The translations under genes were made by a program, and so were the position numbers. A DNA stretch of 64,000 nucleotides from Crambe crambe (taxonomy: Eukaryota; Porifera; Demospongiae; Poecilosclerida; Crambeidae), in the NCBI GenBank assembly GCA_963924555.1, contig OZ004584.1:2541001-2605000 (forward strand). The letters are read 5' to 3'. Positions 12,421-37,009 of this stretch are shown piece after piece. The number at the start of each line of letters is the position of its first letter. Within the stretch, counting starts at the first letter, position 1. The notes beneath the pieces are model-generated. The model was not told the origin of the DNA and searched no databases. It saw nothing but the letters and a program-made list of their open reading frames with translations.

Positions 12421-12502
12421 ACAAGTCCGCAATGATAGATACATACCTTGGCAGATGAAGTAGACGACATTGGACCATAGATTGTATAGACTACGTAACC
12501 GG

Positions 12503-12570
12503 TGTCATAAAGTTTTGGGGACCCCGTAGTTCTAGGGACCCCCCATCCCTAAAACTACCATAGATATGGG
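12503..12570 (+). repeat. E1 left terminal inverted repeat
   Basis: Pairs with 28945-29011. The two arms agree in TGTCATAA, GTTTTGGGGACCCC, AGGGACCCCC and AAAACTAC in the same order and spacing, with a few substitutions and small gaps. The end base follows directly on CCGG. Confidence 0.88.
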
Positions 12571-12961
12571 GACCCCCTCATAGATATAGGGACCCCCCCA
12601 CCCCCAATCCTCGCGCGCTTTATACATCATTGGACAAAAGTGAGGGAGAGCAAAATATTCAGTTCAAGCTGGGTAAGTTAGCCTAGCTATAGCTAATACA
12701 TCATGTAAACTGTTTTAAGGTTGAATAATACAGAGTTCGAGGCTGTCATATGGACCACAGTTTCGATCATAGCCAAGTTTGATACGATACAAATATATAC
12801 ATTATCCTAGCTTGCATTAATTCTTATTCATATTTTAATCATTACTACAACTACTATTATTTTCATAATTATATTTCATTTTATAATAATACTTATAGTA
12901 GTAATTAAATTACTACTACTATTAATAATAATAGGTAATAATGATAATAATAATAACAATA

Positions 12962-13020
<59 letters not shown>
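12962..13020. repeat. (TAA)n microsatellite
   Basis: About 19 uninterrupted AAT/TAA units within E1's left arm. Confidence 0.9.
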
Positions 13021-15662
13021 GGTCAGATTCCTCTATATACCATACTTTCAGCAAAAATCCAAAATGAAAAGCATAGATTCAATAATATCTGTAGATTCAA
13101 CGATGCTGTACTAGAAATTTGACCTATAACAGCACAAAAGGGTTATTATTGTACATTCAATAATGGAGTGGGTCCCCATATTTACAAAAGGGCCTAAATT
13201 TTGGATGAGATACATATCATAGATTTGGGATGGGATCCCATCCTGATGCAGATTGTAGCTCTCTATGCGGATAGTCTCATGTAGCTGTATATATAGCCAA
13301 GAAAGCGGTTGCTGAATATCGTATGTATGTTGATCAAAGGATATCTCATAGCTATACATAGTTAGATGTATAGTTACTATTCTCCATCTGTAGATATGGG
13401 GACCCCATCGTATGTATGTTGATCAAAGGATATCTCATAGCTACATAGCTAGATACGTATATATTACCATTCTCCATTGTAGATATGGGGACCCCGTCCC
13501 CAAAATTAATTAATGTATACTGATCAAAGGATATTACATACACAGATATATATTGTAGATATGGGATCCCTAAATGTATATTGATCAAAGGATATCTCAT
13601 TCTCCATTGGACCCCATCGTACTATGTTGATCAAAGGATATCTCATACATAGATAGCTATAGGTACCATTCTCCATTGTAGATGTATGGGGACCCCATCC
13701 CAATCAAAACAATCATGAATCTATATGATTCTCCATCTGTAGATATGGGGACCCCATCCACAAATGTACTTTGATCAAAGGATATCTCATCCAGGTACCA
13801 TATACTCCATCGTACGTAGATATGGGGACTCCATCATATGTGTTGATCAAAGGATATCTCATTCACAAATCTACTCATCGTAGATATGGGGACCCCATCG
13901 TATGTATGTTGATCAAAGGATATCTCATAGCTATACATAGCTAGATGTATAGTTACCATTCTCCATTGTAGATACGGGGACCCCGTCCCCAAAATTAATG
14001 TATATTGATCAAAGGATATTATATACAGAGATATAGGTACCATTCTCCATTGTAGATATGGGGATCCCCCAAATGTATATTGGTCAAAGGATATCTCATA
14101 CGTACATACCATTCTCCATTGTAGATACATAGATAGAGGTACTATTCTCTATCTGTAGTTATGGGGACCCCGGCCCATCGTACTATGTTGATCAAAGGAT
14201 ATCTCATACTTTGATCAAAGTACATTCGGGGATGGGATCCCCATATCTACAGATGGAGAATGGTACCTAGCTATATCTAGATGAGGTATCTTGTTTGATC
14301 AATATACATTGATTTTGGTGATGGGGTCCCCATATCTACGATGGAGTAGCTATGGTGCATACCTAGCAATGTAGATTCGTGGATGAGATATCCTTTGATC
14401 AACACAGTCCCCATATCTACAATGGAGTATGGTACGCACCTAGTTGAAGATTCGTGGATGAGATATCCTTTGATCAAAGTACATTTGGGGATGGGGTCCC
14501 CATATCTACAGATGGAGAATGGTGTAGATTTGTGAATGAGATACTTTGATCAATAAATTTTGGGATGGGGTCCCCATACATTTACAATGGAGAATGGGAT
14601 ATCTCATCCACGAATCTTCATAGATATAGCTAGGTATCCCCAAATGTATACTGATCAAAGGATACCACTCTCTGGGACCCCATTAATATCTCATCCATGA
14701 ATCTACACCATTCTCCACCTGTAGATATGGCCATGAATCTTCATTATTATTATTGGAACCAACCATAGATATGGGGATCCCATCCCTAAATGTACATTGA
14801 TACCTCATCATAATATGGGGACCCCACCCCCAAATTTATGTTGATCAACATATCTCATCCACGAATCTACACCATTCTATTTATCATGGAATCCTTAATC
14901 TGTAGATATGGGGACCTCATCTCATCCACATAGATATAGGTACCATTCTCCATCTGTAGATATGGGGACCTCATCATGTTGATCAGAAGATATTTCATCG
15001 ACGAATCTTGGATTGTATGTTGATCAAAGAATATCTCATCCACGAATCTACATAAGTATAGGTATCATTCTCTATTGTAGATATAGGTACCATTCTCCAT
15101 ATCCCAGTTGATAAAGATATAAATTTACATACATGTACGTAGATATAGGTACCATCTCCATCTGTAGATATGGAGACGGTCTCCATATTTACAGATGCAG
15201 AATGGTACCTATATCTTATATCTTTTTTACCCTATCCCAGGAAGCTATCTAGTAGATAGGGGACACCATCCGCTAATTTTGATATCTCATCCCTAGCTAT
15301 GTCAAAAGTTGAGTAGCTATTCTTGGCATTAGTAGCTATGTACATGTGTGTGAAAGTTCTCCTCTCCTCCAACGAGCCAACATCACATTTTATGGGTAGC
15401 AGAAGGTGATATGCAATGATCCAGATCAGATGAGAGTTTGAACTCACCCTCAATGTCTGATTTCTCTCTGTCCCGACTCTTTGCTCTCACGGGCATCACT
15501 GGGGTATTCAGTGGTGGAAATTTTAATAGCATTTATACAAAGGAGTTGAGTCAGACTGATATCAATATACCCAACAGCAACATTTGCATGTCATCATAAG
15601 AGCGATTTTTAAACTGCTACGTAAGCTTACGTACGTACGTACGTCGACTTAAGATTGCGTAT

Positions 15663-17447
15663 ATGCATGTCAACTCGTGCGTCGTGATGGAAGGAAAATT
15701 TAGTTTCAGACAAATCTTTGACTACATCAACTCTGGATTCTATCCAGAGGGTTTGGAAAAACAAGATAAACTCTCTTTACGGAAAAGAGCGAAATACTTT
15801 ATCATAGAGGAAGCTCAGCTCTACTATGTTGGGGGTAAAACTATTACTATTAAAATAGTCTAAATCAGTAGCTAGTTTCATTTATAGGAAAGAGAACAGT
15901 TCCACCAAGGCTGGTGATTGAAAATGTTGATCAACAAAAGAGAATCATATCAGCAATTCATGATGCCAACCATCTGGGATTAAATAGGACTTATGATCTC
16001 ATTTCTAAAAAATATTACTGGCCTTTGATGTACAAAGAAATTTCAGCATATGTAAGTGTTAGCACTAAAGTGTTAGAATATTTTACCACTGTCACATTCA
16101 TATAGGTTCAGACATGCAATCAGTGCCAAAGAAGTAATAAAAAATTAAGGAAAGAAAGTGGTACACTTCATCCTATTCCTGTCACATCTCAATTATGGAG
16201 CCAAATAGGAATGGACCTCATAGGACCACTACCTCAGACTCCTCGTGGCTACAAATATATTATTACAATTACTGATTACTTTTCCAAGTGGGCTGAAGCT
16301 GCCCCTCTTACAGATAAAACTGCTGGAAATGTTGCTAAATTTGTGTACAGTGTGAGTTTTTCACCATAAACTTGAAATATAAATATTTACACTAATTAAT
16401 TTGTAGTGCTTATGCACTGACAAAGCTATTTTTGGTGCAGGCTTGAACATGCTTATGCACTGATAAAGCTATTTTTTTGGTGCAGGCTTGAACGTGCATG
16501 CATGCTTATGCACTGACAAAGCTATTTTTGGTGCAGGCTTGAACATGCTCATGCACTGATAAAGCTATTTTTGGTGCAGGCTTGAACATGCTTAGCTAAA
16601 GCATTATTTTTCATGCTACAGACTTTGAACTTGAATAGTGAATGTGCCTCTGATGTGTATTACTGTGTTTAATGTGAACAGGTGATGTGTCGATATGGTT
16701 GCCCAGAAGTCTTAATCACTGACCAAGGAAAGGAATTCGTGAATGATCTCTCAGCACAGCTCTACTCTATGACAAATACTGAGCATAGAATCACCACTGC
16801 CTACCATCCACAGGTGTTTTTATACATGTACATATTATCCAAGTTCGCTATCTTACCTATAGTTATATTGTTTATAGACCAATGGTCTCACAGAGTGTTT
16901 CAATCAGACTCTTACTAGATGCCTGGCTAAAATGTGCAATCAAGATCATAATGACTGGGATGAGAAGATTGATACCATTTTAATGGGATATCGGGCATCA
17001 AGTCAAGCCTCGACCAAACACTCCCCTTACTTCATGTTATTTCAAAAAGAGATGCATCTTCCAATTGATAACGAAATAATTCCTATAGGAAATATTATTG
17101 AAGAAGGAGATTTGGACAAGACAATGGAGATTTTATTACAGAAAAAGAAAGAATTATTTAAAAAAGTTGAGAGCAATATAAAAATATCCCAGCAAAAGCA
17201 AAAGGAGACCTATGACAGAAAGCATCTCCCCAAGGAATTGGCTCCTGGAACCGAAATCCTGATTGAAAATACTGCTCAAAAAGAAAGAAAGCGAGGAAAG
17301 TTGGATGATGCATTTCTAGGACCATATACAATTCATAAAAGTTTAGGGAAAGGTATATACAAGGTTATGAACCAGAAAGGTGTGATTCTTAAGAAGAAAG
17401 TGAATATCAGCAGGATAAAAATGTACAAGAAGAGAGATGAATCCATG
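15663..17447 (+). CDS. E1 transposase module: spliced DD35E integrase with GPY domain (5 exons, about 428 aa)
   Basis: Exons 15663-15834, 15888-16051, 16106-16351, 16682-16813 and 16878-17447 join with matching phases and no stop. In order: an N-terminal segment from ATG 15663; an HHCC zinc finger (IHDANHLGLNRT, then CNQCQ); the catalytic core with Asp in GMDLIGPLPQ, Asp in LITDQGKEF and Glu in NGLTECFNQ, Asp and Glu being 35 residues apart as in retroviral-type integrases; and a C-terminal GPY/F domain (DAFLGPYTIHKSLGKGIYKV). It should cut and join DNA ends in the nucleus. There is no RT, protease or gag nearby, and TIRs flank the locus, so it is a DNA-transposon integrase. The last donor (GTAATG, 17448) may lead into the proline-rich exons; without splicing there the frame stops at about 17474. 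Confidence 0.85.
16385..16600 (+). repeat. Tandem repeats of about 50-60 bp in E1 integrase intron 3
   Basis: Four copies of a unit with ATGCACTGA(C/T)AAAGCTA and TTTTTGGTGCAGGCTTGAAC. Each unit ends in an acceptor-like GGTGCAG. The copies do not continue the reading frame, so they are intronic. Confidence 0.85.
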
Positions 17448-17537
17448 GTAATGCACCCCATTATCCATTATAGCTAGTTAGCTAGCTACCTTTCCAAAGT
17501 AAAAGACTTTAGCAAATCCTTAATTGCACCAATGCAG

Positions 17538-18414
17538 CCTCCTCCATCACCCTATCAGCAACTTCCTCCATCTGACAAGGTGTCCCATTCCAAGGTGAAA
17601 ACATGCACTTGCACTTCCAATTTCGCTAGTTCTACCTTCATACCTTTGAACATGCTTGCAGCCTCCTCCATTATCCTACCAGCAACCTCCTCAACCATCT
17701 GACAAGGTGCCCCATTCCAAGGTGAAAACATGCACTTCTAATTTTGCTAGTTCTGCCTTCATACCTTTGAACATGCATGCAGCCTCCTCCATCATCTTAT
17801 CAGCAACCTCCTCAACCATCTGACAAGGTGCCCTATTCCAAGGTGAAAACATGCACTTCTAATTTGCTAGTTCTGCCTTCATACCTTTGAACATGCATGC
17901 AGCCTCCTCCATCATCTTATCAGCAACCTCCTCCATCTGACAAGGTGCCCCATTCCAAAGCACTTCCATAGGGGGAGGAAGGTCATCTATTTTCGGTGGG
18001 CTGAGTGTAAAAAAGTGTGACCATACTAGCACGCAAAGCGTGCCATCTAAGGGGGTCTGGGGGTATTTTGGATTTTAAGCCTCACATTCTCTGAGGTTCT
18101 AGGGTGATGTCTCAATTATTGAGGGGGCTCAGCCCCCACCTTCTGAACATTGGGGGGGGGGGGGGGCTTTAGCCCCTCCAGCCCCCACCTTCCGCCTCCT
18201 ATGACTTCTAATTTTGCTAGTTCTGCCTTCACTTTGAACATGCAGCCTCTGGATCCCACACCACCCTATCAGCAACCACTTCAACCACCTGACAAGCACC
18301 CCCATTCCAAGGTAAACATGTATTTCCAATTTAGTTCTGTTTTGAATATGCAGCCTTCTCTATCACCCTATCAGCAACCACTTCAACCATCTGACAAGCA
18401 GCCCCATTACAAGG
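17538..18414 (+). CDS. E1: array of six duplicated proline-rich mini-exons
   Basis: Six copies of a unit of about 120 bp start near 17538, 17663, 17783, 17902, 18245 and 18353. In each, an acceptor ATGCAG is followed by a 57-66 nt open stretch coding P-x-x-x-YQQPxQPSDKxPHSK-like peptides, and in most the stretch ends at AAG/GT. Every copy keeps the open frame although the spacers have drifted, which suggests they are coding. The expected product is a proline/glutamine-rich linker between integrase and the USP domain. Copy 4 is cut by an inserted repeat. Joining to the exons on either side is inferred from position only. Confidence 0.55.
17958..18205. repeat. Small repeat inserted in mini-exon copy 4
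   Basis: Sequence with GGGGGAGGAAGGTCATC, GCACGCAAAGCGTGCC and a G-run of about 16 interrupts the mini-exon unit exactly between CATTCCAA and the next spacer. It has no coding sense and looks like a short dispersed element. Confidence 0.5.
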
Positions 18415-18469
18415 TCCATAGTTATATCTCAGCCAGTCTAGACTTTATAGTGTATAGCTAATACTTCAG

Positions 18470-19790
18470 AAGTTTTGTGGAATTCCCAATAAAGAGAACA
18501 GCTGCTGGTTGATATCAATTGTTCAACTGCTGAATACAACAAGTTTATATCAATTCCTTTATGGTAAGTGTATTTGTCAATGAGCCATTTGTGATAATAA
18601 TGTGATGTTATTAATTAAGGAATGAAAAATATGAATCAAGTTCAGGCTGAGTATTGCAGAATTTTCAAAGCATTGAAGTGTCATCAGTCTGTCAATATTC
18701 TACTTTTGAAGGTGTGGAAGGCCATATTGATATATGTAATGATCTTAGGTATAATCATTTATAGTCCATGCTCAAGCCAAGTCTTGCTAATTGTCATCAT
18801 CAGGACACTGCAGAGGGTTTGCAATCATTAACAGGCCATTTGGTTGAGAGCATTGATGTAAGTTATTGTATAGGAATTCACTCACTTATACATAGCTAAT
18901 ATATAGCTATAAATGCAATTCTTTTACACATGATGATGACAGGAATACAAGTGTGACAGACTGTTTACTACATCTTATTTGACTCAATCCTATTGTACCT
19001 TTTGCCACAATGGAGGAACTCGTGAGGTATAATAATAATAATAATATAAATGATTTTAACCTGATCCTTTAGTTCATTGATGGAGTATTGGAAAAGAATC
19101 CAATCCTTTATTGTTCGCTCGGTAATAGCCGGAAAGAAATCACTGTAGAAGATCTGATTATGTTTGATCATAACATTGATAGAGTCACAAAAGGACCAAG
19201 TGATAGGTAACAGCTATACTTGAAATTTAGTACATGCAGACTTGTTTGTATAATCTATGGTGTATAGACAATGTTCGATCTGCCGAAACTTGGGAGGAAT
19301 TCATGTATCTTCAAAGCTTAAAACTCTGCCAGAGTATTTGTCTATAGTGTGTAAGAGAACTTTAATCTATGGAAGAAAACGATCAGGACCATCCAAGCGA
19401 TCTAATAGACAAGTCATTATTCAGAGGTGCTTGAATAATCATAGTTTGACACTAATAGCTAATATGCATATGTATTACACCGTACAGGAACATAAAACTA
19501 AAGCTTGATGGTAGGACTATCGAGTATCAATTACAAGGATTTATTGTAAGTTTCTTAATGAGTATTGAAAAGAGATTATAGCGATTGTACTGCAGGTACA
19601 TCATGGTACTACAGTAACAAGTGGTCACTGTAAGATTGAATATTACTAGAATGAATAACTGCATAATTTGTCTTCAATATTCACAGATGATACTTATCTG
19701 ACTCAGCAAACCTGTTCTTCTTTGGTCCACATTAATGATTTACATATTTCAGAAGTGGAAGGCAATACTATTGACTCTACATATATCAAG
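18470..19790 (+). CDS. E1 USP-type (C19) deubiquitinase domain, nine small exons
   Basis: Exons 18470-18563, 18620-18711, 18765-18857, 18943-19026, 19073-19206, 19268-19426, 19488-19545, 19596-19629 and 19687-19790 join in phase without a stop. The catalytic Cys box reads GIPNKENSCWLISIVQLL (Cys codon 18503-18505). A QDTAEGLQSL segment matches the QxDAxEFL box. Two CxxC pairs (CTFC, CSIC) fit the zinc ribbon of the fingers region. The His box is YQLQGFIVHHGTTVTSGHY, with the His codon at 19626-19628. The family hydrolyses ubiquitin isopeptide bonds; the substrate here is unknown. Catalytic Cys and His are present; an Asn/Asp partner may be in VHINDLHIS. It follows the integrase exons in the same orientation inside E1, so it is probably part of the same transcript (inference). 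Confidence 0.75.
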
Positions 19791-19828
19791 GTAGCTATAA
19801 TGAATGTTATTATACTTTAGTTCACTCA

Positions 19829-19908
19829 AGTGTTTTAATGCACCTGCACGAGGATGATGCTATAATGCTCGAGATGAGCCGAAGCATCATTCGATGCATT
19901 AAAACACA
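19829..19908. repeat. Short hairpin-forming insertion
   Basis: Arms GTGTTTTAATGCA and TGCATTAAAACAC face each other with an interior GATGATGCT / AGCATCATT pair. It lies in the long gap between the USP and Ulp1 exons. Confidence 0.6.
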
Positions 19909-20470
19909 TGGAGCTAGATCTAAACAATTTTAGTGTTGATCACATGACTTTGATCCAATCAAATTCCACCCTAGCTTTACACACATTGGGTTCAGTAAGA
20001 ATGCTCAAAATTAAAATTCCTCAAGTGTGCATTAAATAGTGCAAATTTAAAGCACATTTTTCAGAGAATCTGATGACCAGCACTAATAGCATGTACATGT
20101 GTTAGTTATAATCTACGAGTTAAATTTGGCGATGTATTAAATTTGATGGTTTGGTGGTCCATCTGTCCAATATCCACCAATAGGTGGATATAGGGCTAGG
20201 GGCCGGGGGTGAGGCTTGAGTGTATATTGTGGAACTATGAGCTGCACACAAGACTACATAATAGCCAGCTAGCTCCGATTCCAGCGTCTCTTTGAGAGTT
20301 CTTGAAGAAGGAGGAAGTGAGCAGGCAGCTGACATCAATCTAAGAATGTTGCCAACTGCGTATGCAAAAATTAAACTCCCAAAATTAACTCCTATATGGC
20401 ATATCACACTTACTACTCTTATTAGTTCTGTTAGTTAAGCAGATTACTAAAAGCCTAATTTATTCTGCAG
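19909..20470. other. E1 intron sequence, no exon recognised
   Basis: Non-coding stretch between the USP and Ulp1 exons. A minus-strand frame of 95 codons (20120-20407) has no recognisable domain and biased composition; I do not treat it as a gene. Confidence 0.4.
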
Positions 20471-20473
20471 AGA

Positions 20474-21800
20474 AATGTGGTAATCCTACTATACTCGACC
20501 TTGGAAACTTCAGTGAGTGCATTGTTAGAAAGCTTACAATCCACTTATTGCATTCCTTTTGGTGTTCTTAATTAAAGGTACATATCTTGGAAATTGATGG
20601 CAATGATTTTTCACCGGAGTTAAAGGTTAGCTAGCAGTCCAAAATCCAGCTATTCTTATTCTTCTTCTATATATGTAGGAGTTCAGCATAATCATACCAG
20701 ATAAGAATGTAAGGACAAGTGGCTATAACTTTAGTTCTTAAAATTACAATACTACAGCAGTTGCATATTGAAACTTTGAGTGATCCACTGCTGGAGCCTA
20801 GCTTGTGGCGATTGAATGATGGTCAATGGCTTGATGATATTGTGAGTTGTACTGTAACCTAAATTTATGATAATTACTTGTTACCTCATTTAGATCATTA
20901 ATAAGTATTTTGCACTATTGAGCCGTGAAAATGATGCTGTAAGTCCAACGCATTTGCTGTTATGAGTTGTATAATAATAATTAGCTGTGAATAGCTACAA
21001 ATCGCAGCAGCAAGTACATTCTTTGGTATCTCTTTAATGAAGGATGGATATAGAGGTGCAAAGAAATATTTCCCAGAAGTAAATGAATTTTACTTATAAT
21101 TGATTATGATCATTAATTTTTTTATCATTGTCAAGAAAAATTTTTTTGATAAAGATGTAGTTTTAATTCCATGGCATCTTAACAATTCTCATTGGATATT
21201 GCTGGTAATTGAAATGTACTATCTAGCTGATCTATAATTATTGTGACCGATATGTATATAGGTTGTGAAACCACAAGAAAAACTTATTATTTTTATGGAT
21301 TCATCGTTGGAGCTATCTAATCCTAAAAAGAGAATTTAATATGGCAAGTAGCTAACCAGCCAATATAAGGCTTCAAAATTATTATTAAATAATTGGCAGG
21401 TATTCTATATGTGAATTGAGTAAAGAGTCTGGATGTGAAGTGGATCAAACAAAGTGGAGGAGATGGAATTCACATGTAATAATAATACCATTAGCTAAGA
21501 ATGATGTTAATTGTTACTAAGCAGAGTATGCCACTTCAAAAGAATACATCAGATTGTGGGATCTTCATATGCATGGTAACTCTTATTATACCTAATAGTA
21601 ATACATAACTGATAATTATTACAGGCTGCTCGCTTTATGGCAATTGGTGAGGTTCCTTCATTTTCTCAGGTTGGTATCATTAGCCAAGAATGTTGATATT
21701 GTTTAGCCATTTATCTTTTAGACTGATATTCCTCATTTAAGAAGAGTGATCCATGAGGAGTTGATTCATGGAAAACTGTTACCAATAAAGTTCAAAGATG
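20474..21800 (+). CDS. E1 Ulp1-type (C48) cysteine peptidase domain, many small exons
   Basis: Short exons give the family's landmarks in order: LWRLNDGQWLDDI then INKYFALLS (the Ulp1 WLND start), KDVVLIPWHLNNSHWILL (catalytic His, codon 21190-21192), VVKPQEKLIIFMDSS (catalytic Asp, 21298-21300), TSDCGIFICM (catalytic Cys, 21555-21557), AARFMAIG, and LRRVIHEELIHGKLL at the end. The family cleaves SUMO or related modifiers. A TAA at 21337-21339 falls in frame after the Asp motif, and the next exon needs another phase, so there is a frame lesion or a splice site I cannot place. It is probably the continuation of the integrase-USP gene. Confidence 0.65.
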
Positions 21801-21844
21801 GTAAACTTTGATTCTTGAATCCTGCATACTAATTATGCTGTCTA

Positions 21845-22590
21845 TTAGATTTAGATTTAAGTGATGAAAAGTCTGGTAGTCCCTCGATACCATTGAAGCA
21901 GATTAATATTCCTTCAGAATACATATTTCCTTCTTTCCATCAAAGAAAGATGAAGATGATGTCTTTATATTTGATCATAGAACAGTCAAGGAAATATGGT
22001 TTGATGTAGCTAAGACATACTTCCGTGAGCACAAAGATCCTATCATTTCAGATCGGTAAATAAAGTAGGTACTTACATGAAAGGGGCTTATGGCACAATA
22101 ATTGAAGTTACGTTTCAACAAAGCTTGGTTCTATAAGCCAGAGGCCCTTTTCTTGGGTACTTCATTAGTTACGTTACATGATGGAATGAGGATTATGACA
22201 TCCTTGATTATAGTGACTGTATATTCAAAAGAGAGTTTGTGAGGAGAGTACTGAAAGAAAATGAAGTAAGTTCATAATAAATTGTACACCTTGATCATAA
22301 CAGTCGCCATGGCAGGACTTATGGAGGAAAATTGTCAGTGGAAAAATTCGTAGCCCTTACAGTGTCAATCCAACTAAGCAATTGAAGAGGAAAATAATGA
22401 CACAATGGCCCATAGAGTTGAATGACTTGGTAGAGCAAATAGCTATAGTTTAATTAGCTTGTTAATAATTATACTAAATTACGTTGCAGGGATTTGAAGT
22501 AGAGACATATCTGAAAGCACTCCAGTGTGATGTACAGAACGTGAAATGATCACAGGTCTCCAGATAGCAGAATATATTTTATGGCCAGAG
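21845..22590 (+). pseudogene. E1 gene, 3' exons with apparent frameshifts
   Basis: Exon-like blocks continue after the Ulp1 domain: DLDLSDEKSGSPSIPL; KDEDDVFIFDHRTVKEIWFD in a frame shifted by one (near 21930); YDILDYSDCIFKREFV; SPWQDLWRKIVSGKI; and GFEVETYLKALQC followed, after a one-base shift near 22540, by EMITGLQIAEYILWPE ending at a donor at 22591. No known domain. The two shifts suggest that the 3' part is decaying while the integrase and USP parts are clean. Confidence 0.45.
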
Positions 22591-22622
22591 GTAAACTCAA
22601 TTTTATGAAATTACATAATATA

Positions 22623-22828
22623 TGTTAAAGATATTGCACTTTCCACTCATTACATGCACCTAACACGTGGCTATGGATATACGGACTCTAGAACATTCTA
22701 TTCTATTGTATCATGATTCATGCGTGCAGTTTTGTCAGTCAGACACTTTTGATCCTTTTGTTAAAGTCATTATTGTTGCTGTTGTCTTCGCGCATTGCTA
22801 CCTGCTGTGCTATCCAACTCCGCCAATA
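22623..22828 (+). repeat. copia 5' LTR
   Basis: Starts TGTTAAAGATATTGCAC and ends CCGCCAATA (TG...TA rather than TG...CA). Boundaries are fixed by comparison with the 3' copy and by the ATATA duplication. Confidence 0.95.
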
Positions 22829-22842
22829 GGTTATGGGCTCAG
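22829..22842 (+). other. copia primer-binding site
   Basis: GGTTATGGGCTCAG directly follows the 5' LTR. It resembles the copia-type site complementary to an internal part of initiator Met tRNA. Confidence 0.7.
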
Positions 22843-22849
22843 GACGAAG

Positions 22850-25800
22850 ATGGCAGAAGTGAAGACAACTGTCATTGTGCCACTGAAAGAAGCAAACTAC
22901 TCGACGTGGAAGGTCCAATGCCGTATGGCCCTAGTACGTGATGGACTATGGGGGATAGTCTGTGGGACAGAGACTGCACCTGCAGAAGGTGAAGACGGTC
23001 GATCGAAGTTCCTCACCAGACGAGACCGTGCACTGGCTACTATTGTGTTAGTGGTTGATCCGTCGTTACTCTATTTGATAGGAGACCCAGAAGACCCCGT
23101 TGTTGTTTGGCAGAAACTACAAAATCAATTTCAAAAAAAGACATGGGCCAATAAGTTAGCTCTTCGCCGCCGACTACACTCGCTACAGTTGAAGAATGGA
23201 GAATCAGTTCAAGTTCATGTAAAGACTATGACCGAGCTGTTTAATGAACTGGCTATAGTCGGAGATGCAATCGGAGAAGAAGATCGAGTAGTGCACTTGT
23301 TAGCAAGTTTGCCTGACTCATTTAACACCCTTGTTACTGCTCTTGAAGCTAATGAAGATGTCCCCAAGATGGAAGTTGTAACTGAAAGGCTACTACATTT
23401 CGAGAGGAAGCAGAAGGAAGCGTCAAGTTCTGACTCTGGGGAGAAGGCAATGTTTACGAAGCGACAATTCAAAGGTAAAGGTCCACAGTGTCACTACTGT
23501 AAGAAGTATGGGCACATCCAGAAAAACTGTATCGATCGCATCAAGGCCGAATCTAAGCAGGGGGGTCCCGAGATAACAAGAGGGAAGAAACCAAAGGCCA
23601 ACAAAGTGGGACTGCTTACTTGTCATGTTCTTGGAGTGAGAACAGCTGATCATGATTGGATAATAGATTTAGGCGCTACCTGCCATATCTGCAATTCCAA
23701 AGAGCTATTTGAGGAGTTTCACCCTCTATCGAAGCCTCAAAAGGTTACCCTGGGTGATGGTCGCACCCTGGAAGCAATTGGAACAGGTGCTGTGGAAGTG
23801 AAACTGAAACTACCCAGTGAGAGGTCCAAGATCGGAAGACTGAGTGAAGTCCTCTATGTTCCTACCCTGGCTTACAACCTTCTGAGTGTAGCCAAAGCTA
23901 CTGAAGCTGGGAAGATGATTACGTTTGGCGAGACAGAAGGTGAAATTGTTGATGACCAAGGAGAAACCGTTGCTATTGCATCAAAAGCAGGAAGTCTATA
24001 CTACCTCAATTGTGAGCCGCTGGATAACCAATCGATCAACTCAGCCAGTCATCAAGCAAACGAGGATCTGTGGCACCGGAGATTTGGCCATCTGGGGGAG
24101 AGAAGTCTGTGTAGGCTGAAGAAAGATGGATTAGTTCACGGCTTTGACTATGATGTCTCAAAAGAGATCGATTTTTGTGAGCCGTGCGTAAGTGGAAAAA
24201 TTCATCGAAGTCCCTTCCCAAAAACTGGTCGAGAGAGAGCCAAGGAGCCGCTGGGGCTTGTCCACAGTGATGTGTGCGGGAAAATCAGTTCACCGTCACT
24301 TGGTGGTGCCGAGTACTTCATCACATTTATTGACGACAAAACACACTACGTGTGGGTGTATGTGATCAAGCACATGCATGAAGTGTTCCAGAAGTTTACA
24401 GAATGGAAGTCCTTGGTTGAAAAATCATCTGGCCACAAGGTGAAGAAGTTGCGAACCGATAACGGAGGTGAATACGTATCAACGGAATTTGAGAATTTTC
24501 TGAAGAAGGAAGGCATAGAGCATCAGTATACCATCCCTAAGACGCCGGAGCAAAACGGAGTCTCAGAAAGATTTAATCGGACATTGATAGAGAAAGTTCG
24601 ATCGATGCTTGCTGACTCAGAACTGCCACACAGTTTTTGGGCCGAAGCCTTGTCTACAGCAGCCTACCTGGTCAACCGAAGCCCTACAAAGACCCTCGAT
24701 GACAAAACGCCATTTGAAGCTTGGTACGGGAAGAAACCCAATGTCAATCACTTACGAGTGTTTGGGTGCCTGACATACATCCACATTCCAAAGGATGAGA
24801 GGAAGAAATTGGACCCCAAGGCAAAAAGGTGTATTTTCCTGGGGTATGGTACCTCGAGAAAAGGATATCGCCTCTACAACAGGAAGACATCGAGTATAAC
24901 TCACAGTCGTGATATTGTCTGCAATGAATCCTCGAAAGGATGGGAGTCCAAGGAAGAGAAACGGCTCATTGAAGTGGAGAATTTCACAGAGCCAGAACCA
25001 GAAGTACCAGAACCAGAACCAGAAGTACCAGAACCAGAAGTACCAGAAGCATCCGAATCAGAAGGAGAACCTGAAGCTGATCCTGAAAGGATTGATCACA
25101 TAAGTGAACCTGAAGTGGAAGACTCCACAGATGTTACAATTCCTCAAAGAACGTCTGCTAGAAGAACCCAAAAACCTGACTACTATGGCACTTGGGCATG
25201 CACAGTTGCTGAGCAGAAGGAACCACAGACAGTGGAGGAAGCTGTAAACTGTTTTGAGAAGGAGCACTGGAAAGCTGCAATGCAAAAGGAGATGGATTCT
25301 ATTTACTCCAACGATGTGTGGGATCTCGTGGAGTTACCTGAAAACAGAAAGCCAGTTGGAAACAAATGGGTATTCAAGAAGAAAACCAAAGCAGATGGAT
25401 CGATTGAACGATTCAAAGCTCGACTAGTCGCTCAGGGATTTTCACAAAAACAGGGTCTGGACTATGACGAAACCTTCAGTCCAGTCATCAGGTTTGAATC
25501 ATTTCGGAGCCTGATTGCAATTGCTGCTCAAAAACATCTCAAGCTTCATCAGATGGACATCACTGCAGCATTTCTAAATGGACACTTAGAAGAGGAAGTG
25601 TTCATGAAGCAACCGGAAGGATTTGCGGTGAAAGGGAAAGAACATCTAGTCTGCCGGTTAAAACAGAGTCTCTATGGCTTGAAGCAATCTTCCAGATGTT
25701 GGAATTCTACATTGGACGTTCATCTGAAGAGTATGGGATATGTTCAGTCCACTAATGATCCATGCATTTATACAGGAGAGTCGTCCATCATTGGAGTCTA

Positions 25801-26764
25801 TGTTGATGACTTCGTAATCGCAGCAGAAAGTTCGGAAAGAATTGAGCAAGTGAGAAGAGCACTGTCACAGAAGTTTGACGTGAAAGATCTCGGAGAGCTA
25901 CATTATTTCCTCGGAGTACAGGTTACTCAAGATCATGAAAAAGGCACTGTCTGGATAGGTCAACCAACCTTTACTGAATCTATTCAGAAATATGGCATGG
26001 GTGAAGCGAAGCCAGCCAAGACTCCTGTTAGTGTCAACTCCAAGTTACTGAAGGCATCAGAAGAGAGTGAGCTTGTTAACCAAAACTTGTACCAGTCAGC
26101 AGTTGGAAGTCTGCTTTATCTGTCTACAAAATCACGTCCTGACCTTGCATTTGCTGTTGGCAACGTTGCTCGCTACTGTTCTAAGCCAACCAAACTACAC
26201 TGGATGGCAGTGAAACGGATATTTAGATATCTCAGAGGGACTACTCAGTTTGGACTGCTTTACTCCAAGGAAGCAAGAACAAATGCTCTGATTGGCTACT
26301 CTGATGCAGATTGGGCAGGGGACTGTAACGACTACAAGTCTACCACTGGATACTTGTTTCAGATTGGTGGCACTGCAGTATCTTGGATGAGCAAGAAGCA
26401 ATCATGTGTTGCTTTATCAACGGCAGAAGCCGAGTACATGGCTCTTTCAAGTGCAGCTCAGGAAGCCATTTGGATGCGAGAACTGAACTCTGACCTGGGA
26501 AATCCTCAATCTCAACCGACCCTAATATTTGAGGACAATCAGTCTGCTATAGCGATGGCTAAAAACCCTCAGTTCCATGGAAGATCAAAGCACATTAACA
26601 TTATTCGGGAGCAAGTCAGCAATGACAAGATTAGCCTTATGTATTGCCCCACTGAAGACATGCTAGCAGATTTATTGACCAAAGGAATTGGACCTGAGAA
26701 ATTCGGAAAACTCAGAAAGCTATGTGGAATGTGTAATCAAGTGTCAAGTGAGAAGGAGTGTTAA
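22850..26764 (+). CDS. copia Gag-Pol polyprotein (1,304 aa)
   Basis: The start chosen is ATG 22850 (MAEVKTTVIVPLKEANYSTW), just after the primer-binding site; the frame is open further upstream only through the LTR. Domains by residue: gag 1-200; CCHC knuckle CHYCKKYGHIQKNC about 214-227; protease about 265-360; integrase with HRRFGHLG and CEPC zinc finger about 408-450, then Asp in VHSDVCGK, Asp in LRTDNGGEY and Glu in NGVSERFNR (35 apart); an acidic PEVPEPE linker about 710-735; RT with YVDDFVIA about 983; RNase H with SDADWAGD and FEDNQSAIAM. It has no stop or frameshift. The protease active site reads DLGAT (codon TTA at 23669-23671) where copia elements have DSGAT or DTGAT, which may block maturation. 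Confidence 0.95.
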   Translation: MAEVKTTVIVPLKEANYSTWKVQCRMALVRDGLWGIVCGTETAPAEGEDGRSKFLTRRDRALATIVLVVDPSLLYLIGDPEDPVVVWQKLQNQFQKKTWANKLALRRRLHSLQLKNGESVQVHVKTMTELFNELAIVGDAIGEEDRVVHLLASLPDSFNTLVTALEANEDVPKMEVVTERLLHFERKQKEASSSDSGEKAMFTKRQFKGKGPQCHYCKKYGHIQKNCIDRIKAESKQGGPEITRGKKPKANKVGLLTCHVLGVRTADHDWIIDLGATCHICNSKELFEEFHPLSKPQKVTLGDGRTLEAIGTGAVEVKLKLPSERSKIGRLSEVLYVPTLAYNLLSVAKATEAGKMITFGETEGEIVDDQGETVAIASKAGSLYYLNCEPLDNQSINSASHQANEDLWHRRFGHLGERSLCRLKKDGLVHGFDYDVSKEIDFCEPCVSGKIHRSPFPKTGRERAKEPLGLVHSDVCGKISSPSLGGAEYFITFIDDKTHYVWVYVIKHMHEVFQKFTEWKSLVEKSSGHKVKKLRTDNGGEYVSTEFENFLKKEGIEHQYTIPKTPEQNGVSERFNRTLIEKVRSMLADSELPHSFWAEALSTAAYLVNRSPTKTLDDKTPFEAWYGKKPNVNHLRVFGCLTYIHIPKDERKKLDPKAKRCIFLGYGTSRKGYRLYNRKTSSITHSRDIVCNESSKGWESKEEKRLIEVENFTEPEPEVPEPEPEVPEPEVPEASESEGEPEADPERIDHISEPEVEDSTDVTIPQRTSARRTQKPDYYGTWACTVAEQKEPQTVEEAVNCFEKEHWKAAMQKEMDSIYSNDVWDLVELPENRKPVGNKWVFKKKTKADGSIERFKARLVAQGFSQKQGLDYDETFSPVIRFESFRSLIAIAAQKHLKLHQMDITAAFLNGHLEEEVFMKQPEGFAVKGKEHLVCRLKQSLYGLKQSSRCWNSTLDVHLKSMGYVQSTNDPCIYTGESSIIGVYVDDFVIAAESSERIEQVRRALSQKFDVKDLGELHYFLGVQVTQDHEKGTVWIGQPTFTESIQKYGMGEAKPAKTPVSVNSKLLKASEESELVNQNLYQSAVGSLLYLSTKSRPDLAFAVGNVARYCSKPTKLHWMAVKRIFRYLRGTTQFGLLYSKEARTNALIGYSDADWAGDCNDYKSTTGYLFQIGGTAVSWMSKKQSCVALSTAEAEYMALSSAAQEAIWMRELNSDLGNPQSQPTLIFEDNQSAIAMAKNPQFHGRSKHINIIREQVSNDKISLMYCPTEDMLADLLTKGIGPEKFGKLRKLCGMCNQVSSEKEC

Positions 26765-26964
26765 AGATATTGCACTCTCCACTCATTACATGCACCTAAC
26801 ACGTGGCTATGGATATACGGACTCTAGAACATTCTATTCTATTGTATCATGATTCATGTGTGCAGTTTTGTCAGTCAGACACTTTTGATCCTTTTGTTAA
26901 AGTCATTATTGTTGCTGTTGTCTTCGCGCATTGCTACCTGCTGTGCTATCCAACTCCGCCAATA
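26759..26964 (+). repeat. copia 3' LTR
   Basis: Same 206 bp as the 5' LTR except two transitions (GCACTTTCC versus GCACTCTCC, and CATGCGTGC versus CATGTGTGC). It overlaps the last codons of the pol frame. Confidence 0.95.
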
Positions 26965-27005
26965 ATATATTCATCAAATTTTACTGTACATACTTAATTA
27001 TGCAG

Positions 27006-27104
27006 ACAATGGTTCTCCTTTTGAGTAAATTGCTCAGTATCGACAGGAGAGCAGCCAAGAATATTTATGATAATCATGATAACGATAAATTACTAGCTAA
27101 CTAA
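27006..27104 (+). CDS. Possible last exon of the E1 gene
   Basis: After an acceptor (TTATGCAG, ending 27005) an open stretch MVLLLSKLLSIDRRAAKNIY runs to TAA 27102-27104. Its phase matches the donor at 22591, so the copia element would lie wholly within the intron 22591-27005. Confidence 0.35.
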   Translation, partial: TMVLLLSKLLSIDRRAAKNIYDNHDNDKLLAN

Positions 27105-27114
27105 CTAATGAAAG

Positions 27115-28160
27115 TTATGTTTCTACAGGCCCATAGCACCCATGATTGAGATGCACCTCGTTGCACTGCCTCTGTATTACCATGCTCTCAAACGGCTCCC
27201 CAAAATAATCCATCAAAGAGTGGTGGCCAAAAGCACCAATGTCTCTATGGCCACTGGTGTAAAGGTATGGCATGGTTTGGGGAAAGGCTAGTGTACTTCT
27301 GCTGCTTTCCCAATGCTTCACCTAGGCCCTGAAGGGGCATATAATTATATCACAGCATGTCAGACAAGCAGGTGCCCTAGTCTCGCTAGCCAGCTGCACT
27401 TGCGCATGCGACTACAGATGCCCATCGTGCCAGTGATATTCCATCTTGCCTCTTTCCAACAGTTCTCATCAGGCCCATTGACTATAGTCTGGAAGGAATG
27501 TGGGCTGAGACAGCCGAGGGCATGTCTTCCCAAAGCATCCACATTGGCAGTATAGTGGTGTGGACCACAGATTGCAGTGCCCAGGTACAGCAATTTCAGG
27601 CCCAATGCAAGTGATTGGTAAGGTATGCAACCAAGCACCAGAGTCCTTAGTCGAAACTGAGCAGTAGCTAGTTGCAGAGTTTTATGATTTGCACTTTAGC
27701 CGTCTCAAAGTCACCGTCACCTTTGAGGGGGTTACACCACTAGTCACCAGATGACAGAAATCTGTATAAGAGTAAACAGCAGTGGCAATGTGTTCGCATC
27801 TGACTGCAACATGTCCTTCAGGTGTTGTCCTGTCTGGTCTCCAGCAGCACACCCACTCTTTTGCTATATCTTCTGTCTTCTGTAGAGATCCAGCTGAACT
27901 AGTAATCAGGGTGGACTGATGGATGTTTGGACTGCTCGTTATGCTCAGCTAAGACATCCTCTAAAATCACCTTCAACTACATGGACACTCTGCAGGCCAA
28001 ATCCTTTAGATGGTCTGCTGCACTTTATGAGGTGGTCTTTCATCCACAATCTGCTCCCTTACAATGCTGGCCAAGGATTGCTTGTTTGAAACCTCTGTCT
28101 ACCTCTTTGTCTCAACGTGTGACAGTGAGGCACCCTCAGACATCTTGCCCCAAACTGAAC
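27115..28160 (-). pseudogene. Relic of a reverse-transcriptase-type ORF C-terminus
   Basis: On the minus strand, broken frames give SGDW, LGTAICGPHH, NVDALGRHALGC, then FTPVAIETL with GAFGHHSL in the neighbouring frame and RGSATRCISI. This resembles the C-terminal pattern (GDWLxALPI, VDxxGxHxLSC, PVAxETLG, QRGNAxC) that follows RT in some invertebrate retroelements. Many stops; dead. Lies inside E1 downstream of its gene. Confidence 0.45.
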
Positions 28161-28259
28161 AGCTATAGCCTATTATTGTGATTTATATACATATACCTAC
28201 AAGGTAGTTCTCAGACTGATTTTTTCCCCCAAGCTAGAAATACTAAATTGAAATCCCTC

Positions 28260-28493
28260 TAATTCATCTCCTATTATGTGTCATTCAGTTCAACTGCAAC
28301 CAGGTTGGGTTCCCTCAAACTAGATCCATCTCCAACTCCCACAGACAGACAGTACTATTTCAACAGACTGCCTAGACTATTCCACTCTCTGCCACCAATT
28401 GATATAACCTTAGGTGCTCCTACCATCAAATCCAAACTCAAAGATTACTTTTGGTCAGTTTTTCTGAGAAGTTTTGAAGCTAGTAACATGTAG
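28260..28493 (+). pseudogene. Fragment of a non-LTR retrotransposon ORF2 C-terminus
   Basis: The frame reads RQYYFNRLPRLFHSLPPID then TIKSKLKDYFWSVFLRSF. This matches the usual end of LINE-type RT ORFs (FxRxxxLWNSLP ... FKxxLxxY). Only the tail is present, probably a 5'-truncated insertion. Confidence 0.5.
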
Positions 28494-28800
28494 CTACACT
28501 CCATCTTGTTATCAAAACTGTATGTCAAGTCCCAAGCCGCCCAATTATATAATTCTATGCTCACATCACATCACATCAATAATCAATCTCTTTGATTGTT
28601 CATTTTTTATTGTCTTTTTAATCCTCTCCTGGTCGCCAGGCCAGTCCTGGTGGACCCTCAGCCTGCTCTAATTACTCCATCTTCTTTTTTGTTATCTTAT
28701 TTCTAAAACGTCATCTTGTGCTGTAAATCTTTAATTAATTTCAGGAAGTTACTACATACTTGCTGAGCTATAGCTATACTTGGCCAGAGCTGGCTACTTT
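28494..28800. other. E1 right arm, non-coding
   Basis: No coding signal; possibly 3' remains of the non-LTR element. The subterminal repeats begin at about 28820. Confidence 0.4.
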
Positions 28801-28819
28801 GGCCTCCATAGACAAAGCT

Positions 28820-29011
28820 GGCTGGGGTCCCCATATCTACGCAGGGGTCCCCATATCTACCGTAGATATGGGGACGGAGGTTCCCATATCTGCGTAGATT
28901 TAGGGACGGGGATCCCCATGTCTACGTAGATTTGGGGACGGGGATCCCCATATCTACGTAGTTTTGGGGACGGGGGTCCCTGAAATAGGGGGTCCCCAAA
29001 ACATTATGACA
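28820..29011 (-). repeat. E1 right subterminal repeats and terminal inverted repeat
   Basis: Six or so copies of GTAGATATGGGGACC and its complement lead into the right TIR (28945-29011), which ends TTATGACA at 29011 directly before CCGG. The right array is about 190 bp against about 2.7 kb on the left. Confidence 0.85.
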
Positions 29012-29015
29012 CCGG

Positions 29016-29320
29016 TGTCATAGTCAGCGGTGACTCCCCTCGGCGATGACTCCCCGGTCACTCCTGACTAGGGGTGGATGACTCCCGGTCACTCATGCCT
29101 AGGCGTGGATGACTCCCGGTCACTCACGCCTAGGTCTGAGTGACTCCCCGGTCATTTCTGACTAGTCTATAATGACTCCCCCCTGGAAAAAATGACTCCC
29201 CAGTTCCGAGCACTCTTGACTAGGCGTGGATGACTCCCGGTCACTCACACCTAGGTCTGAGTGACTCCCCAGTCATTTCTGACTTGTCTGCCCCTGGAAA
29301 AAGACTCACCAGTCCCAATT
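29016..29320 (+). repeat. E2 left terminal and subterminal repeats
   Basis: The TIR is followed by repeated GATGACTCCCGGTCACTC and CCTAGG(C/T)(G/C)TGAGTGACTCC units, a different motif from E1's array but in the same position relative to the end. Confidence 0.75.
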
Positions 29321-29442
29321 CATTGCATTGCTGCATGCAAAATCATAATAAGTCAAGGATTTATACCATAGTTGCTTGTGAAATTGGAATCTTTTGTGCC
29401 TAGGAAGAAATTACTCCCTGAATCAACTCCCCTAGAGTCATG

Positions 29443-29700
29443 TGTCGCGGACTGGGACGCAGAGAACTTATAGTTAAGTCAATTTTTAATAGCAACTGGC
29501 AGGACTGCTCAGTCCAACACAAAAACTACTTAAATACATCAATAACACATGAATGTACAAACTAATGATTTAACACACTATACAGAGAGGGGAGAAATAA
29601 CACACATAGCTAAACACATGAAGGGTGAGTTTGACAAATATGACACAGAAAGAATAATTACATTAACACTTAGCTACTTAGAGTTATGCTGTTCATGACA
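29443..29700 (-). repeat. Gmr1-like 3' LTR
   Basis: On the plus strand reads TGTCGCGGACTGGG ... GTTCATGACA. Bounded by the polypurine tract on its inner side. Confidence 0.92.
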
Positions 29701-29740
29701 CTCCATCCCCCTTCTCCTGCGACATTCATGTCGGTGAAAG

Positions 29741-30833
29741 TTAAACCAGGCGGGAGAGGCCATCAGCATTTTGATTGTCTTTGCCACTGCGGTAGTGGAT
29801 CTCGAAGTCATAGGGCTGGAGTGCCAAACTCCAGCGGGTGAGTCGGCTATCGTTTTCCTTCAGACGTTCCATCCATTCTAATGCGCGATGATCAGTCTGA
29901 ATGGTGAAGTGTCGGCCAAGCAGGTAGATTCTAAATGCCTCCACCCCAAGACGTATGGCGAGGCACTCCTTTTCAATTGTGGAATAGCGTTCCTCACGAG
30001 GGAGTAGCTTTCAACTAAAGTATCCAACAGGGTGCTCCTCTCCTGTATCACTCATCTGGCTTAACACAGCCCCAACTCCCCTTGCTGAGGCATCCGTCTG
30101 TAGTGTGAACGGTTTGGCAAAATCGGGGGTCTTCAACACTGGGGATAAACACATCTTTTGCTTGAGGGTGGTAAATGCTGCATTACACTCTGGTGTCTAC
30201 TTGAATCGATTGGGGGAAGATTTCCGAGTGAGGTCTGACAAGGGGGCGGCTATGCTGGCGAAGTCCGGAATAAACTTCCGATAGTAGCCAGTCAAGCCGA
30301 GGAATGCTCTAACTTCCTTCCTAGTTTCTGGCACTGAGAAACTCTGAATTGCTTCAACTTTGGAGGCTTCCGGCTCCACCACCCCACTTCCAATCACTTG
30401 TCCAAGGTAGACACATCTTGACATTCCAAATTGGCATTTCTTGCGTTTCACCTTGAGTCCAGCTTTCTGCAATCTCTCCATAACTTGCTGTATGTGTTGG
30501 AGATGTTCGGTCCAGGTCTTGCTATAGACGATGATATCATCCAAGTAGGCAGCTGTAAAGTCGTCTAGACCCTGAATGACTCTGTCGACCAAACGTTGCA
30601 ATGTGGCTGGTGCCCCTTGTAGGCCAAACGGCATAACTCGAAACTGGTACAGTCCAAAGGGGGTGACAAATGCACTCTTGATCTTGGCTCTCTCTGTCAA
30701 TGGCACCTGCCAATACCCCTTGGTGAGATCAATAGTTGTGATGAACCTTGCTTGTCCTGCACGATCAATGAGTTCATCTATGCGAGGCATTGGATATGCA
30801 TCGGCTTGGGAGATGTTATTCAACTGGCGGTAG
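29741..30833 (-). pseudogene. Gmr1-like RT-RNase H, broken in three places
   Basis: Continues the preceding polyprotein in another frame: VDYRQLNNISQADAYPMPR, then the RT palm FRVMPFGLQGAPATLQRL and YLDDIIVYSKT, down to an in-frame TAG near 30196. Beyond it the RNase H region (LQTDASARGVGAVLSQ) meets a TGA near 30009 and resumes with EAFRIYLLGRHFTIQTDHRA to NADGLSRLV. So there is one frameshift at about 30834 and two nonsense codons; reverse transcriptase cannot be made from this copy. Confidence 0.88.
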
Positions 30834-34160: not shown

Positions 34161-34250
34161 TCGATAGTTACTGTAGCTATAGAGGTTCTCCAACTGGCAC
34201 AGGTCTTGTCTCAACTTCTGTAGACAACTATCCCACCGCTGCCACCAAGA

Positions 34251-34504
34251 TGTCGCGGACTGGGACGCAGAGAACTTATAGTTAAGTCAATTTTTAATAG
34301 CAACTGGCAGGACTGCTCAGTCCAACACAAAAACTACTTAAATACATCAATAACACATGAATGTACAAACTAATGATTTAACACACTATACAGAGAGGGG
34401 AGAAATAACACACATAAACACATGAAGGGTGAGTTTGACAAATATGACACAGAAAGAATAATTACATTAACACTTAGCTACTTAGAGTTATGCTGTTCAT
34501 GACA
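34251..34504 (-). repeat. Gmr1-like 5' LTR
   Basis: No substitution against the other LTR; lacks 4 bp. The inner side is followed (minus strand) by TCT and then TGGTGGCAGCGGTGGGA, a likely tRNA primer-binding site (about 34231-34247). Confidence 0.92.
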
Positions 34505-36612: not shown

Positions 36613-36644
<32 letters not shown>

Positions 36645-36720: not shown

Positions 36721-36724
36721 ACAT

Positions 36725-36997: not shown

Positions 36998-37009
36998 AAA
37001 ATGAAATAA

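What the first reader, a model, noticed from the sequence alone, without database searches (positions are those of the whole stretch)
12499..29015. A 16.5-kb TIR transposon (E1) with a gypsy-type integrase and CCGG target duplication
Seen: matching ends TGTCATAA(A/T)GTTTTGGGGAC at 12503 and 29011, CCGG on both sides, and a spliced DD35E integrase with HHCC finger and GPY domain inside, with no gag, protease or RT of its own. Known: Ginger1 transposons are cut-and-paste elements with gypsy-like integrases, TGT...ACA ends and 4-bp duplications. Inference: E1 is an unusually large member. Subtracting the copia insertion it is still about 12 kb.
Basis: partly seen in the sequence, partly recalled or inferred. 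Interest (0 to 1): 0.93.

Follow-up and report, generated by a model that had tools for sequence, protein, structure and literature searches.

The report
Giant Ginger1 transposon with two proteases
This is a real, recently mobile 12-kb "jumping gene" (16.5 kb here because another element landed in it) of the Ginger1 type in what is probably a sponge genome, and its transposase gene also carries a ubiquitin-removing and a SUMO-removing protease, a combination I did not find described and that could help ask why transposons carry such proteases.

Summary
Of 34 end-paired elements examined (E1 included), 28 have CCGG on both sides; single GCGG/GCGG and ACGG/ACGG cases prove a direct 4-bp duplication. 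Two other full-size copies (12.42, 12.24 kb) lack the copia insert; natural empty sites exist. E1 is a Ginger1 transposon (YPYY, HHCC, DD35E, GPY, TGTNR ends, CCGG target). A second family, F2 (13 end-paired places, 11 of them 11-14.5 kb, own TIRs, NCGG/CCGN-type duplications), has the same order, and its protease codons look constrained (dN/dS 0.17-0.35 in 12 of 12 between-subfamily pairs). Published Ginger1s are 2.6-7 kb with OTU or Ulp1 "but not both". F1 and F2 proteases are 63-65% identical but integrases only 44%, suggesting that the protease cassette moved between integrase lineages. E1's own copy is probably no longer fully coding. What the proteases do is inferred. New variant of a known kind.

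The parts
12499..12502 (.). left target-site duplication CCGG
   Evidence: direct repeat shown on relatives with GCGG/GCGG and ACGG/ACGG
12503..12577 (+). left terminal inverted repeat, 75 bp, TGTCA start
   Evidence: local alignment with the right end, score 94 vs shuffle maximum 28
13310..15220 (.). left subterminal array of short repeats (TTGATCAAAGGATATCTCAT and GTAGATATGGGGACCCC motifs, both orientations); possible transposase-binding array (inference)
   Evidence: the repeat finder D2-D6, D8, D12-D13 and inverted pairs
15687..17447 (+). exons 1-5: integrase (YPYY, HHCC, DD35E, GPY)
17538..18411 (+). proline-rich linker; repeat unit of about 121 bp that carries a small exon; number of units differs between copies; only two of the possible linker exons are in my model
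   Evidence: (D7, D9)
18470..19790 (+). exons 8-16: ubiquitin-specific protease (UCH, C19), Cys box NKENSCW, His box TSGHY
   Evidence: Pfam UCH 1.4e-14 on the C1 copy; catalytic positions shared with P0003 and P0007
20473..22055 (+). exons 17-29: Ulp1/SENP-like SUMO protease (C48); in E1 itself the later exons are frame-shifted
   Evidence: Pfam C48 1.6e-23 on the C1 copy; SENP1 5.5e-24
22231..22536 (+). putative further 3' exons; the piece tested matches no Pfam family above its cut-off
   Evidence: reading; weak
22623..26964 (+). nested copia element, 206-bp LTRs (22623-22828, 26759-26964), one long ORF; absent from the C1 and C14 copies
28820..28939 (.). right subterminal repeats of the GGGGTCCCCATATCTACG type
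   Evidence: D4, D13, D17
28940..29011 (-). right terminal inverted repeat
29012..29015 (.). right target-site duplication CCGG, shared with the neighbouring element E2 that starts at 29016

Best explanation
E1 is a probably decayed copy, with a copia element nested in it, of a 12.4-kb Ginger1 DNA transposon. SHOWN by sequence: its TIRs begin TGTCA, its family inserts at CCGG with a 4-bp duplication, uninterrupted sites exist, and a sister copy (C1) has one open spliced frame joining a gypsy-like integrase to a ubiquitin-specific protease and a Ulp1-type SUMO protease; a second, also dispersed family has the same order. INFERRED: the integrase part binds the ends, processes the 3' ends after CA and joins them across a 4-bp stagger at CCGG as retroviral-type integrases do, and the GPY part multimerises. 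The USP and Ulp1 parts most likely remove ubiquitin and SUMO from the transposase or from host proteins at donor and target sites, so that the transposition complex is not cleared too early and gap repair proceeds; I put that role at about 0.4, with self-processing of the long protein as the main alternative. Excision was not shown here, and Bao et al. 2010 call the Ginger1 excision mechanism unknown. The confidence below is for the anatomy and the Ginger1 assignment.
For: Exact ends and duplication. Two other full-size copies. Empty site for an E1-family element at four relatives with a single CCGG, 96-99% over 465-600 bp (L020 and L041 overlap, so three separate places), and for the full-size C1 copy at C21:1185960-1186141 and C9:8262916-8263097, contiguous over query 119-300 with the junction at 150. 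Domains on the open C1 frame of 1050 residues: H2C2 2.7e-18, rve 8.9e-10, UCH 1.4e-14, C48 1.6e-23. F2: integrase, linker, USP, Ulp1 in order, end at TGTTG after CCGG or ACGG, 13 places with paired TIRs, identical 4-bp duplications in 10 of 13, exact 26-base empty sites for 3 of 13 (C18, C9, C10). dN/dS of F2 USP and part of Ulp1: 0.17-0.35 in 12 of 12 between-subfamily pairs. Integrase-UCH proteins in Strongylocentrotus and Apostichopus.
Against: No transcript or protein was examined; exon borders are mine, from three copies and homology. E1 is frame-shifted in the Ulp1 exons and C14 is broken too. 4 of 34 duplications, and 3 of 13 in F2, do not match. The AU test does not reject E1's integrase inside the gypsy core (p 0.205). 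The three E1-family copies alone show no clear selection: C1-C14 differ by 1.1% in exons and 1.0% in introns. Within F2 subfamilies dN/dS scatters from 0.15 to 1.8 on few changes, and some F2 copies have stop or gap codons in the stretches compared. The C14 empty-site evidence is weak (11-21 bases on the left including the duplication). A database search with the USP-Ulp1 part alone gave no hit at E 0.001 among 6558 candidates, so the three-part fusion rests on this one genome.
Confidence: 0.9

Rival explanations
1. E1 is an ordinary Ginger1; the USP exons are a host gene fragment captured by chance and without function.
For: Capture of host sequence by DNA transposons is common (recalled). 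E1's own gene is decayed in its 3' part.
Against: The USP-Ulp1 order recurs in F2 at 63% and 65% identity; catalytic positions are kept; dN/dS is below 1 in 12 of 12 between-subfamily pairs; the C1 frame runs without a stop through all three parts; integrase-UCH proteins occur in echinoderms.
Confidence: 0.05
2. The two cysteine proteases cut the long transposase itself into working parts (maturation), rather than acting on host ubiquitin or SUMO.
For: Relatives of Ulp1 serve as maturation proteases in some DNA viruses (recalled). The C1 frame is at least 1050 residues long.
Against: The best solved relatives by sequence are SENP1/2/3/5 and, weakly, USP30 and USP28. Shorter Ginger1 proteins of 500-800 residues carry OTU or Ulp1 too (PMC2836005).
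Confidence: 0.25
3. E1 is a remnant of a gypsy LTR retrotransposon, not a DNA transposon.
For: The integrase resembles gypsy integrases; the AU test does not reject E1 in the gypsy core (p 0.205). One RT-bearing Ephydatia protein (P0021) lies among the Ginger1-like rows.
Against: Inverted, not direct, terminal repeats; no RT-like frame seen in E1 outside the copia, and C1 and C14 align with E1 without it; CCGG duplications and empty sites; short copies that keep little besides the ends.
Confidence: 0.02
4. The E1 family (F1) and F2 simply share one three-part ancestor, and the integrase of F2 evolved faster; no cassette exchange took place.
For: Same order of domains and size class. The AU test against a joint clade is moderate (p 0.024, groups named after seeing the tree), and the F2 integrase used lacks some residues.
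Against: USP 63% and Ulp1 65% identical but integrase 44% between F1 and F2, while F1 against echinoderm proteins shows the reverse, integrase 47-50% and USP 24-29%.
Confidence: 0.4

Closest known systems
Ginger1 DNA transposons (Bao, Kapitonov and Jurka 2010, PMC2836005; abstract, Results and Discussion read)
   Same: TGTNR ends, TIRs of 40-270 bp, CCGG or CCGT/ACGG 4-bp duplications, integrase with YPYY, HHCC, DDE and GPY, a Ulp1 C-terminal domain, introns in some
   Different: 12.2-12.4 kb instead of 2.6-7 kb; 28 introns in my model instead of 0-4; at least 1050 residues instead of 500-800; a UCH/C19 protease between integrase and Ulp1, where the paper has OTU or Ulp1 but not both
Integrase-UCH proteins of Strongylocentrotus purpuratus (P0007) and Apostichopus japonicus (P0003)
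   Same: Same order of integrase and USP; P0007 is the nearest integrase to E1 in the tree (89/90)
   Different: No C48 match at E 0.01; USP only 24-29% identical to F1's; whether they lie in transposons was not examined
Sponge Ginger1-like proteins (Ephydatia P0002, P0005, P0011; Halichondria P0001)
   Same: Integrase with a C48 domain (P0002, P0005, P0011) or a PHD finger (P0001, P0005)
   Different: No UCH domain listed
GIN1/GIN2 and Imagin host genes
   Same: Derived from Ginger1 integrases (PMC2836005 read; PMC12863088 abstract start and passages only)
   Different: Host genes; E1 is multi-copy, with TIRs
Ginger2/TDD and Polinton/Maverick
   Same: Gypsy-like integrase and TIRs
   Different: Ginger2 targets AT-rich sites and lacks GPY and YPYY (PMC2836005); Polintons have 6-bp duplications (PMC10045372 passage). 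E1 matches neither

Membership tests
Ginger1 | integrase with HHCC finger and DDE core | tested here: met
   Pfam H2C2 2.7e-18, rve 8.9e-10; D-35-E
Ginger1 | YPYY motif upstream of the finger | tested here: met
   Y, P, F and Y positions invariant with P0003 and P0007
Ginger1 | GPY/F motif | tested here: met
   LGPYTI in exon 5; G and P invariant
Ginger1 | TGTNR ends and TIRs of 40-270 bp | tested here: met
   TGTCA, 75 bp; F2 TGTTG
Ginger1 | 4-bp CCGG or CCGT/ACGG duplication | tested here: met
   28 of 34 CCGG/CCGG plus one GCGG and one ACGG pair; F2 identical in 10 of 13
Ginger1 | C-terminal OTU or Ulp1, not both | tested here: met
   Ulp1 present, OTU not among Pfam matches; the additional UCH is outside the published description
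Ginger1 | length 2.6-7 kb (described range, not a strict criterion) | tested here: not met
   12,422 and 12,241 bp for the copies without copia
Ginger1 | integrase groups with Ginger1 rather than gypsy | tested here: inconclusive
   Tree places it with RT-less rows (40 of 41, support 82/86), but AU p 0.205 does not exclude the gypsy core; rows were chosen by me from one search and no published Ginger1 reference sequence was in the set
Ginger1 | cut-and-paste transposition | not testable with these tools
   Empty sites show insertion; no excision footprint was looked for
Ginger2/TDD | RTATAY target, no GPY, no YPYY | tested here: not met
   CCGG target, GPY and YPYY present
Gypsy LTR retrotransposon | direct LTRs with RT and gag | tested here: not met
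   inverted ends; no RT-like frame seen outside the nested copia
Polinton/Maverick | 6-bp duplication and DNA polymerase B | tested here: not met
   4-bp duplication; Pfam of the C1 frame shows no polymerase; ORFs outside that frame were not scanned by Pfam

The most novel reading that the evidence does not exclude
A USP plus Ulp1 protease cassette is an evolutionary module that has been exchanged between separate Ginger1 integrase lineages and gives a class of giant (11-14 kb) transposons whose transposase is at once an integrase, a deubiquitinase and a deSUMOylase, acting on both modifier systems during transposition.
Probability: 0.4. Interest if true: 0.78.

Novelty: new variant of a known kind. 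Interest (0 to 1): 0.62.

Why it matters
Bao et al. 2010 noted the OTU and Ulp1 domains of Ginger1 and left their role open. An element with both a deubiquitinase and a SUMO protease, in two dispersed families and with constrained protease codons in one of them, makes the question testable by inactivating one protease or the other. It also extends the described size of Ginger1 well beyond 7 kb and hints that the protease part evolves separately from the integrase.

Tried and rejected
Considered and rejected: gypsy remnant (inverted ends, no RT-like frame seen); Ginger2 and Polinton (target, duplication length, motifs); chance ends (34 pairs); CCGG as part of the TIR instead of a duplication (GCGG/GCGG and ACGG/ACGG, and F2's CCGT/CCGT and CCGC/CCGC, are direct repeats); the USP as a one-off capture (F2). 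A first gene model with a wrong border at exon 17 gave stops and was replaced. The profile hit P0121 looked like a strong relative but holds repeated integrase parts and no UCH match at E 0.01. A search with only the USP-Ulp1 part found nothing. The L049-L063 junction match lies in short repeats and was not counted as an empty site. A first comparison with copies used one strand only; the C3 place, whose gene exons and left end point opposite ways, is rearranged and was not analysed further. Literature searches (listings) showed no paper on a Ginger1 with a USP; the library lacks most subscription journals and Repbase was not available, so absence in print is not established.
Full report
What was checked. 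The reported ends and CCGG flanks are exact. The two ends align as a 75-bp TIR, score 94 against a maximum of 28 in 200 shuffles. Several of the best named protein relatives are from Halichondria, Ephydatia and Oopsacas, which are sponges (recalled); this suggests a sponge host, but the species was not determined.

Mobility. Searches with the two ends give about 40 scored places each (lower bounds). Of 48 entries examined, 33 gave 34 paired elements and 15 were left out as one-ended, diverged or possibly cut. 28 of 34 have CCGG on both sides, one GCGG/GCGG, one ACGG/ACGG, and four do not match. Because CCGG is a palindrome, the GCGG and ACGG cases are what show a direct duplication. Element lengths run from 924 bp to 12.4 kb, and 16.5 kb for E1 with its copia. 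One element at C3:5549895 has relatives with an uninterrupted single CCGG in L020, L041, L031 and L042 (96-99% over 465-600 bp; L020 and L041 overlap, so three separate places). The full-size C1 copy has two uninterrupted counterparts, each matching query 119-300 with the junction at 150. For C14 the left overlap is only 11-21 bases including the duplication, which is weak.

Size. C1 is 12,422 bp and C14 12,241 bp; both lack the copia. They are about 97% identical to E1 over the gene-bearing part and 92% over the leftmost 0.9 kb. Within 15687-22055, substitutions in exons and introns are 0.7% and 1.2% (E1-C1), 1.0% and 1.3% (E1-C14), 1.1% and 1.0% (C1-C14), so these three copies alone do not show selection. 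A related place at C8, about 3378.8-3383.5 kb, also has integrase, USP and Ulp1 exon matches; its ends were not located.

The gene. Comparison of the three copies and homology gave a 29-exon model from 15687 to 22055. The C1 copy reads through all of it without a stop, 1050 residues: integrase 1-420, linker, USP 460-730, Ulp1 part 731-1050. Pfam gives H2C2, rve, UCH (1.4e-14) and C48 (1.6e-23), each above its curated cut-off. By sequence the Ulp1 part matches SENP1 (5.5e-24) and the USP part matches USP30 and USP28 weakly (4.3e-4 and 0.011). The USP Cys-box, His-box and a third position (D696 of P0007) are shared with the echinoderm relatives; naming them catalytic is from recall. In E1 itself the integrase and USP exons are open but the Ulp1 exons are frame-shifted, and C14 is broken near its start and in Ulp1, so E1 is probably no longer autonomous. 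Further small exons may follow (about 22231-22536); the piece tested matches no Pfam family above its cut-off. The linker holds a repeat of about 121 bp that carries a small exon, and the number of units differs between copies.

A second family. USP hits elsewhere in the genome led to F2. In the C10 copy the integrase (48% in the best core stretch), linker, USP and Ulp1 occur in the same order. In six other copies the USP is followed by Ulp1 exon matches (6 of 6), and a GPY-like integrase end was seen upstream in 5 of the 6; their full integrases were not read. The left end was found by comparing two copies: similarity starts with the CGG of CCGG in one and ACGG in the other, followed by TGTTGCAG. 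13 places have paired ends and further matches are single ends; 11 of the 13 are 11.0-14.5 kb and two are 4.0 and 4.7 kb (lengths). Duplications are identical in 10 of 13: ACGG twice, CCGT, CCGC twice, CCCC, GCGG, and CCGG three times, of which two places on C15 share flanks; ACGG/CCGG, GCGG/CCGG and TCGG/CCGG do not match (for C6 and C5 the right side was read from the printed sequence, since the script's string search missed a changed base in the TIR). Exact 26-base uninterrupted sites were found among fetched loci for 3 of 13: C18 and C9, which sit in the same repeat, and C10.

Selection and relationship. Over the F2 USP and part of Ulp1 (up to 374 codons; stop and gap codons set aside), dN/dS is 0.17-0.35 in 12 of 12 pairs between the subfamilies L081/L086/L088/L090 and L082/L083/L084; within subfamilies it scatters from 0.15 to 1.8 on few changes. 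F1 against F2: integrase 44%, USP 63%, Ulp1 65%; F1 against echinoderm: integrase 47-50%, USP 24-29%. The integrase tree has 65 rows, chosen by me from 114 usable of 123. It puts E1 with sea-urchin P0007 (89/90) and F2 with fish and amphioxus sequences (93/76). Of 21 RT-bearing rows, 17 lie outside the starred branch (96/85) that holds E1 and 4 (P0021, P0074, P0087, P0099) within it. Forcing E1 and F2 together is rejected at p 0.024 and the four UCH-bearing rows together at p 0.034; forcing E1 into the gypsy core is not rejected, p 0.205. The groups for these tests were named after seeing the tree. Exchange of the protease cassette is therefore a reasonable but unproven reading.

Known work. 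Bao et al. 2010 (PMC2836005; abstract, Results and Discussion read) describe elements of 2.6-7 kb, 0-4 introns, proteins of 500-800 residues, CCGG 75% and CCGT/ACGG 24%, and OTU or Ulp1 but not both; they mention a C19 domain with a different transposase in Trichomonas. Of the 120 hits listed of 455, two carry UCH and none both UCH and C48; of the 120 listed of 1146, one carries UCH and none both. The passages that I saw of PMC6431247, PMC10045372, PMC12863088 and PMC10871703 show no Ginger1 with a USP.

Interpretation. E1 fits Ginger1 in the sequence features tested, except that its size is outside the described range and the integrase tree alone is inconclusive. What differs is the added deubiquitinase, the size and the intron number. 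How the proteases act is inference.

Noticed in passing
window 29016-37953: A second element E2 directly abuts E1 and shares its CCGG: TGTCATAGTC... to TGTCAAAGTC... (reverse), followed by CCGG. Its left end has 40 scored places in the genome. It holds PHD/Ulp1-type coding remnants on the minus strand (about 34874-35200); the only integrase match inside it lies in the nested gypsy.
   Followed up: partly
window about 29600-34450: A gypsy-type retrotransposon nested in E2 on the minus strand with a long open frame; its integrase falls among the RT-bearing gypsy rows.
   Followed up: partly
window 10741-11370: Array of 66-bp tandem repeats, copies 72-94% identical to the reference copy.
   Followed up: no
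L092 and C10:3997406-4000600 (F2): F2 has a left array of repeats several kb long, comparable with E1's left subterminal array; a possible shared asymmetric end design.
   Followed up: partly
flanks of C14 full copy, L045, and F2 copies C18 and C9: E1-family and F2 elements have landed more than once in the same dispersed repeat.
   Followed up: partly
G000:C3:3855118-3861765 (L025, L026): A rearranged E1-family copy: integrase and USP exons on the plus strand but a left end pointing the other way.
   Followed up: no
P0007, P0003: Integrase-UCH fusion proteins in sea urchin and sea cucumber; whether they are transposons or host genes is not known.
   Followed up: no
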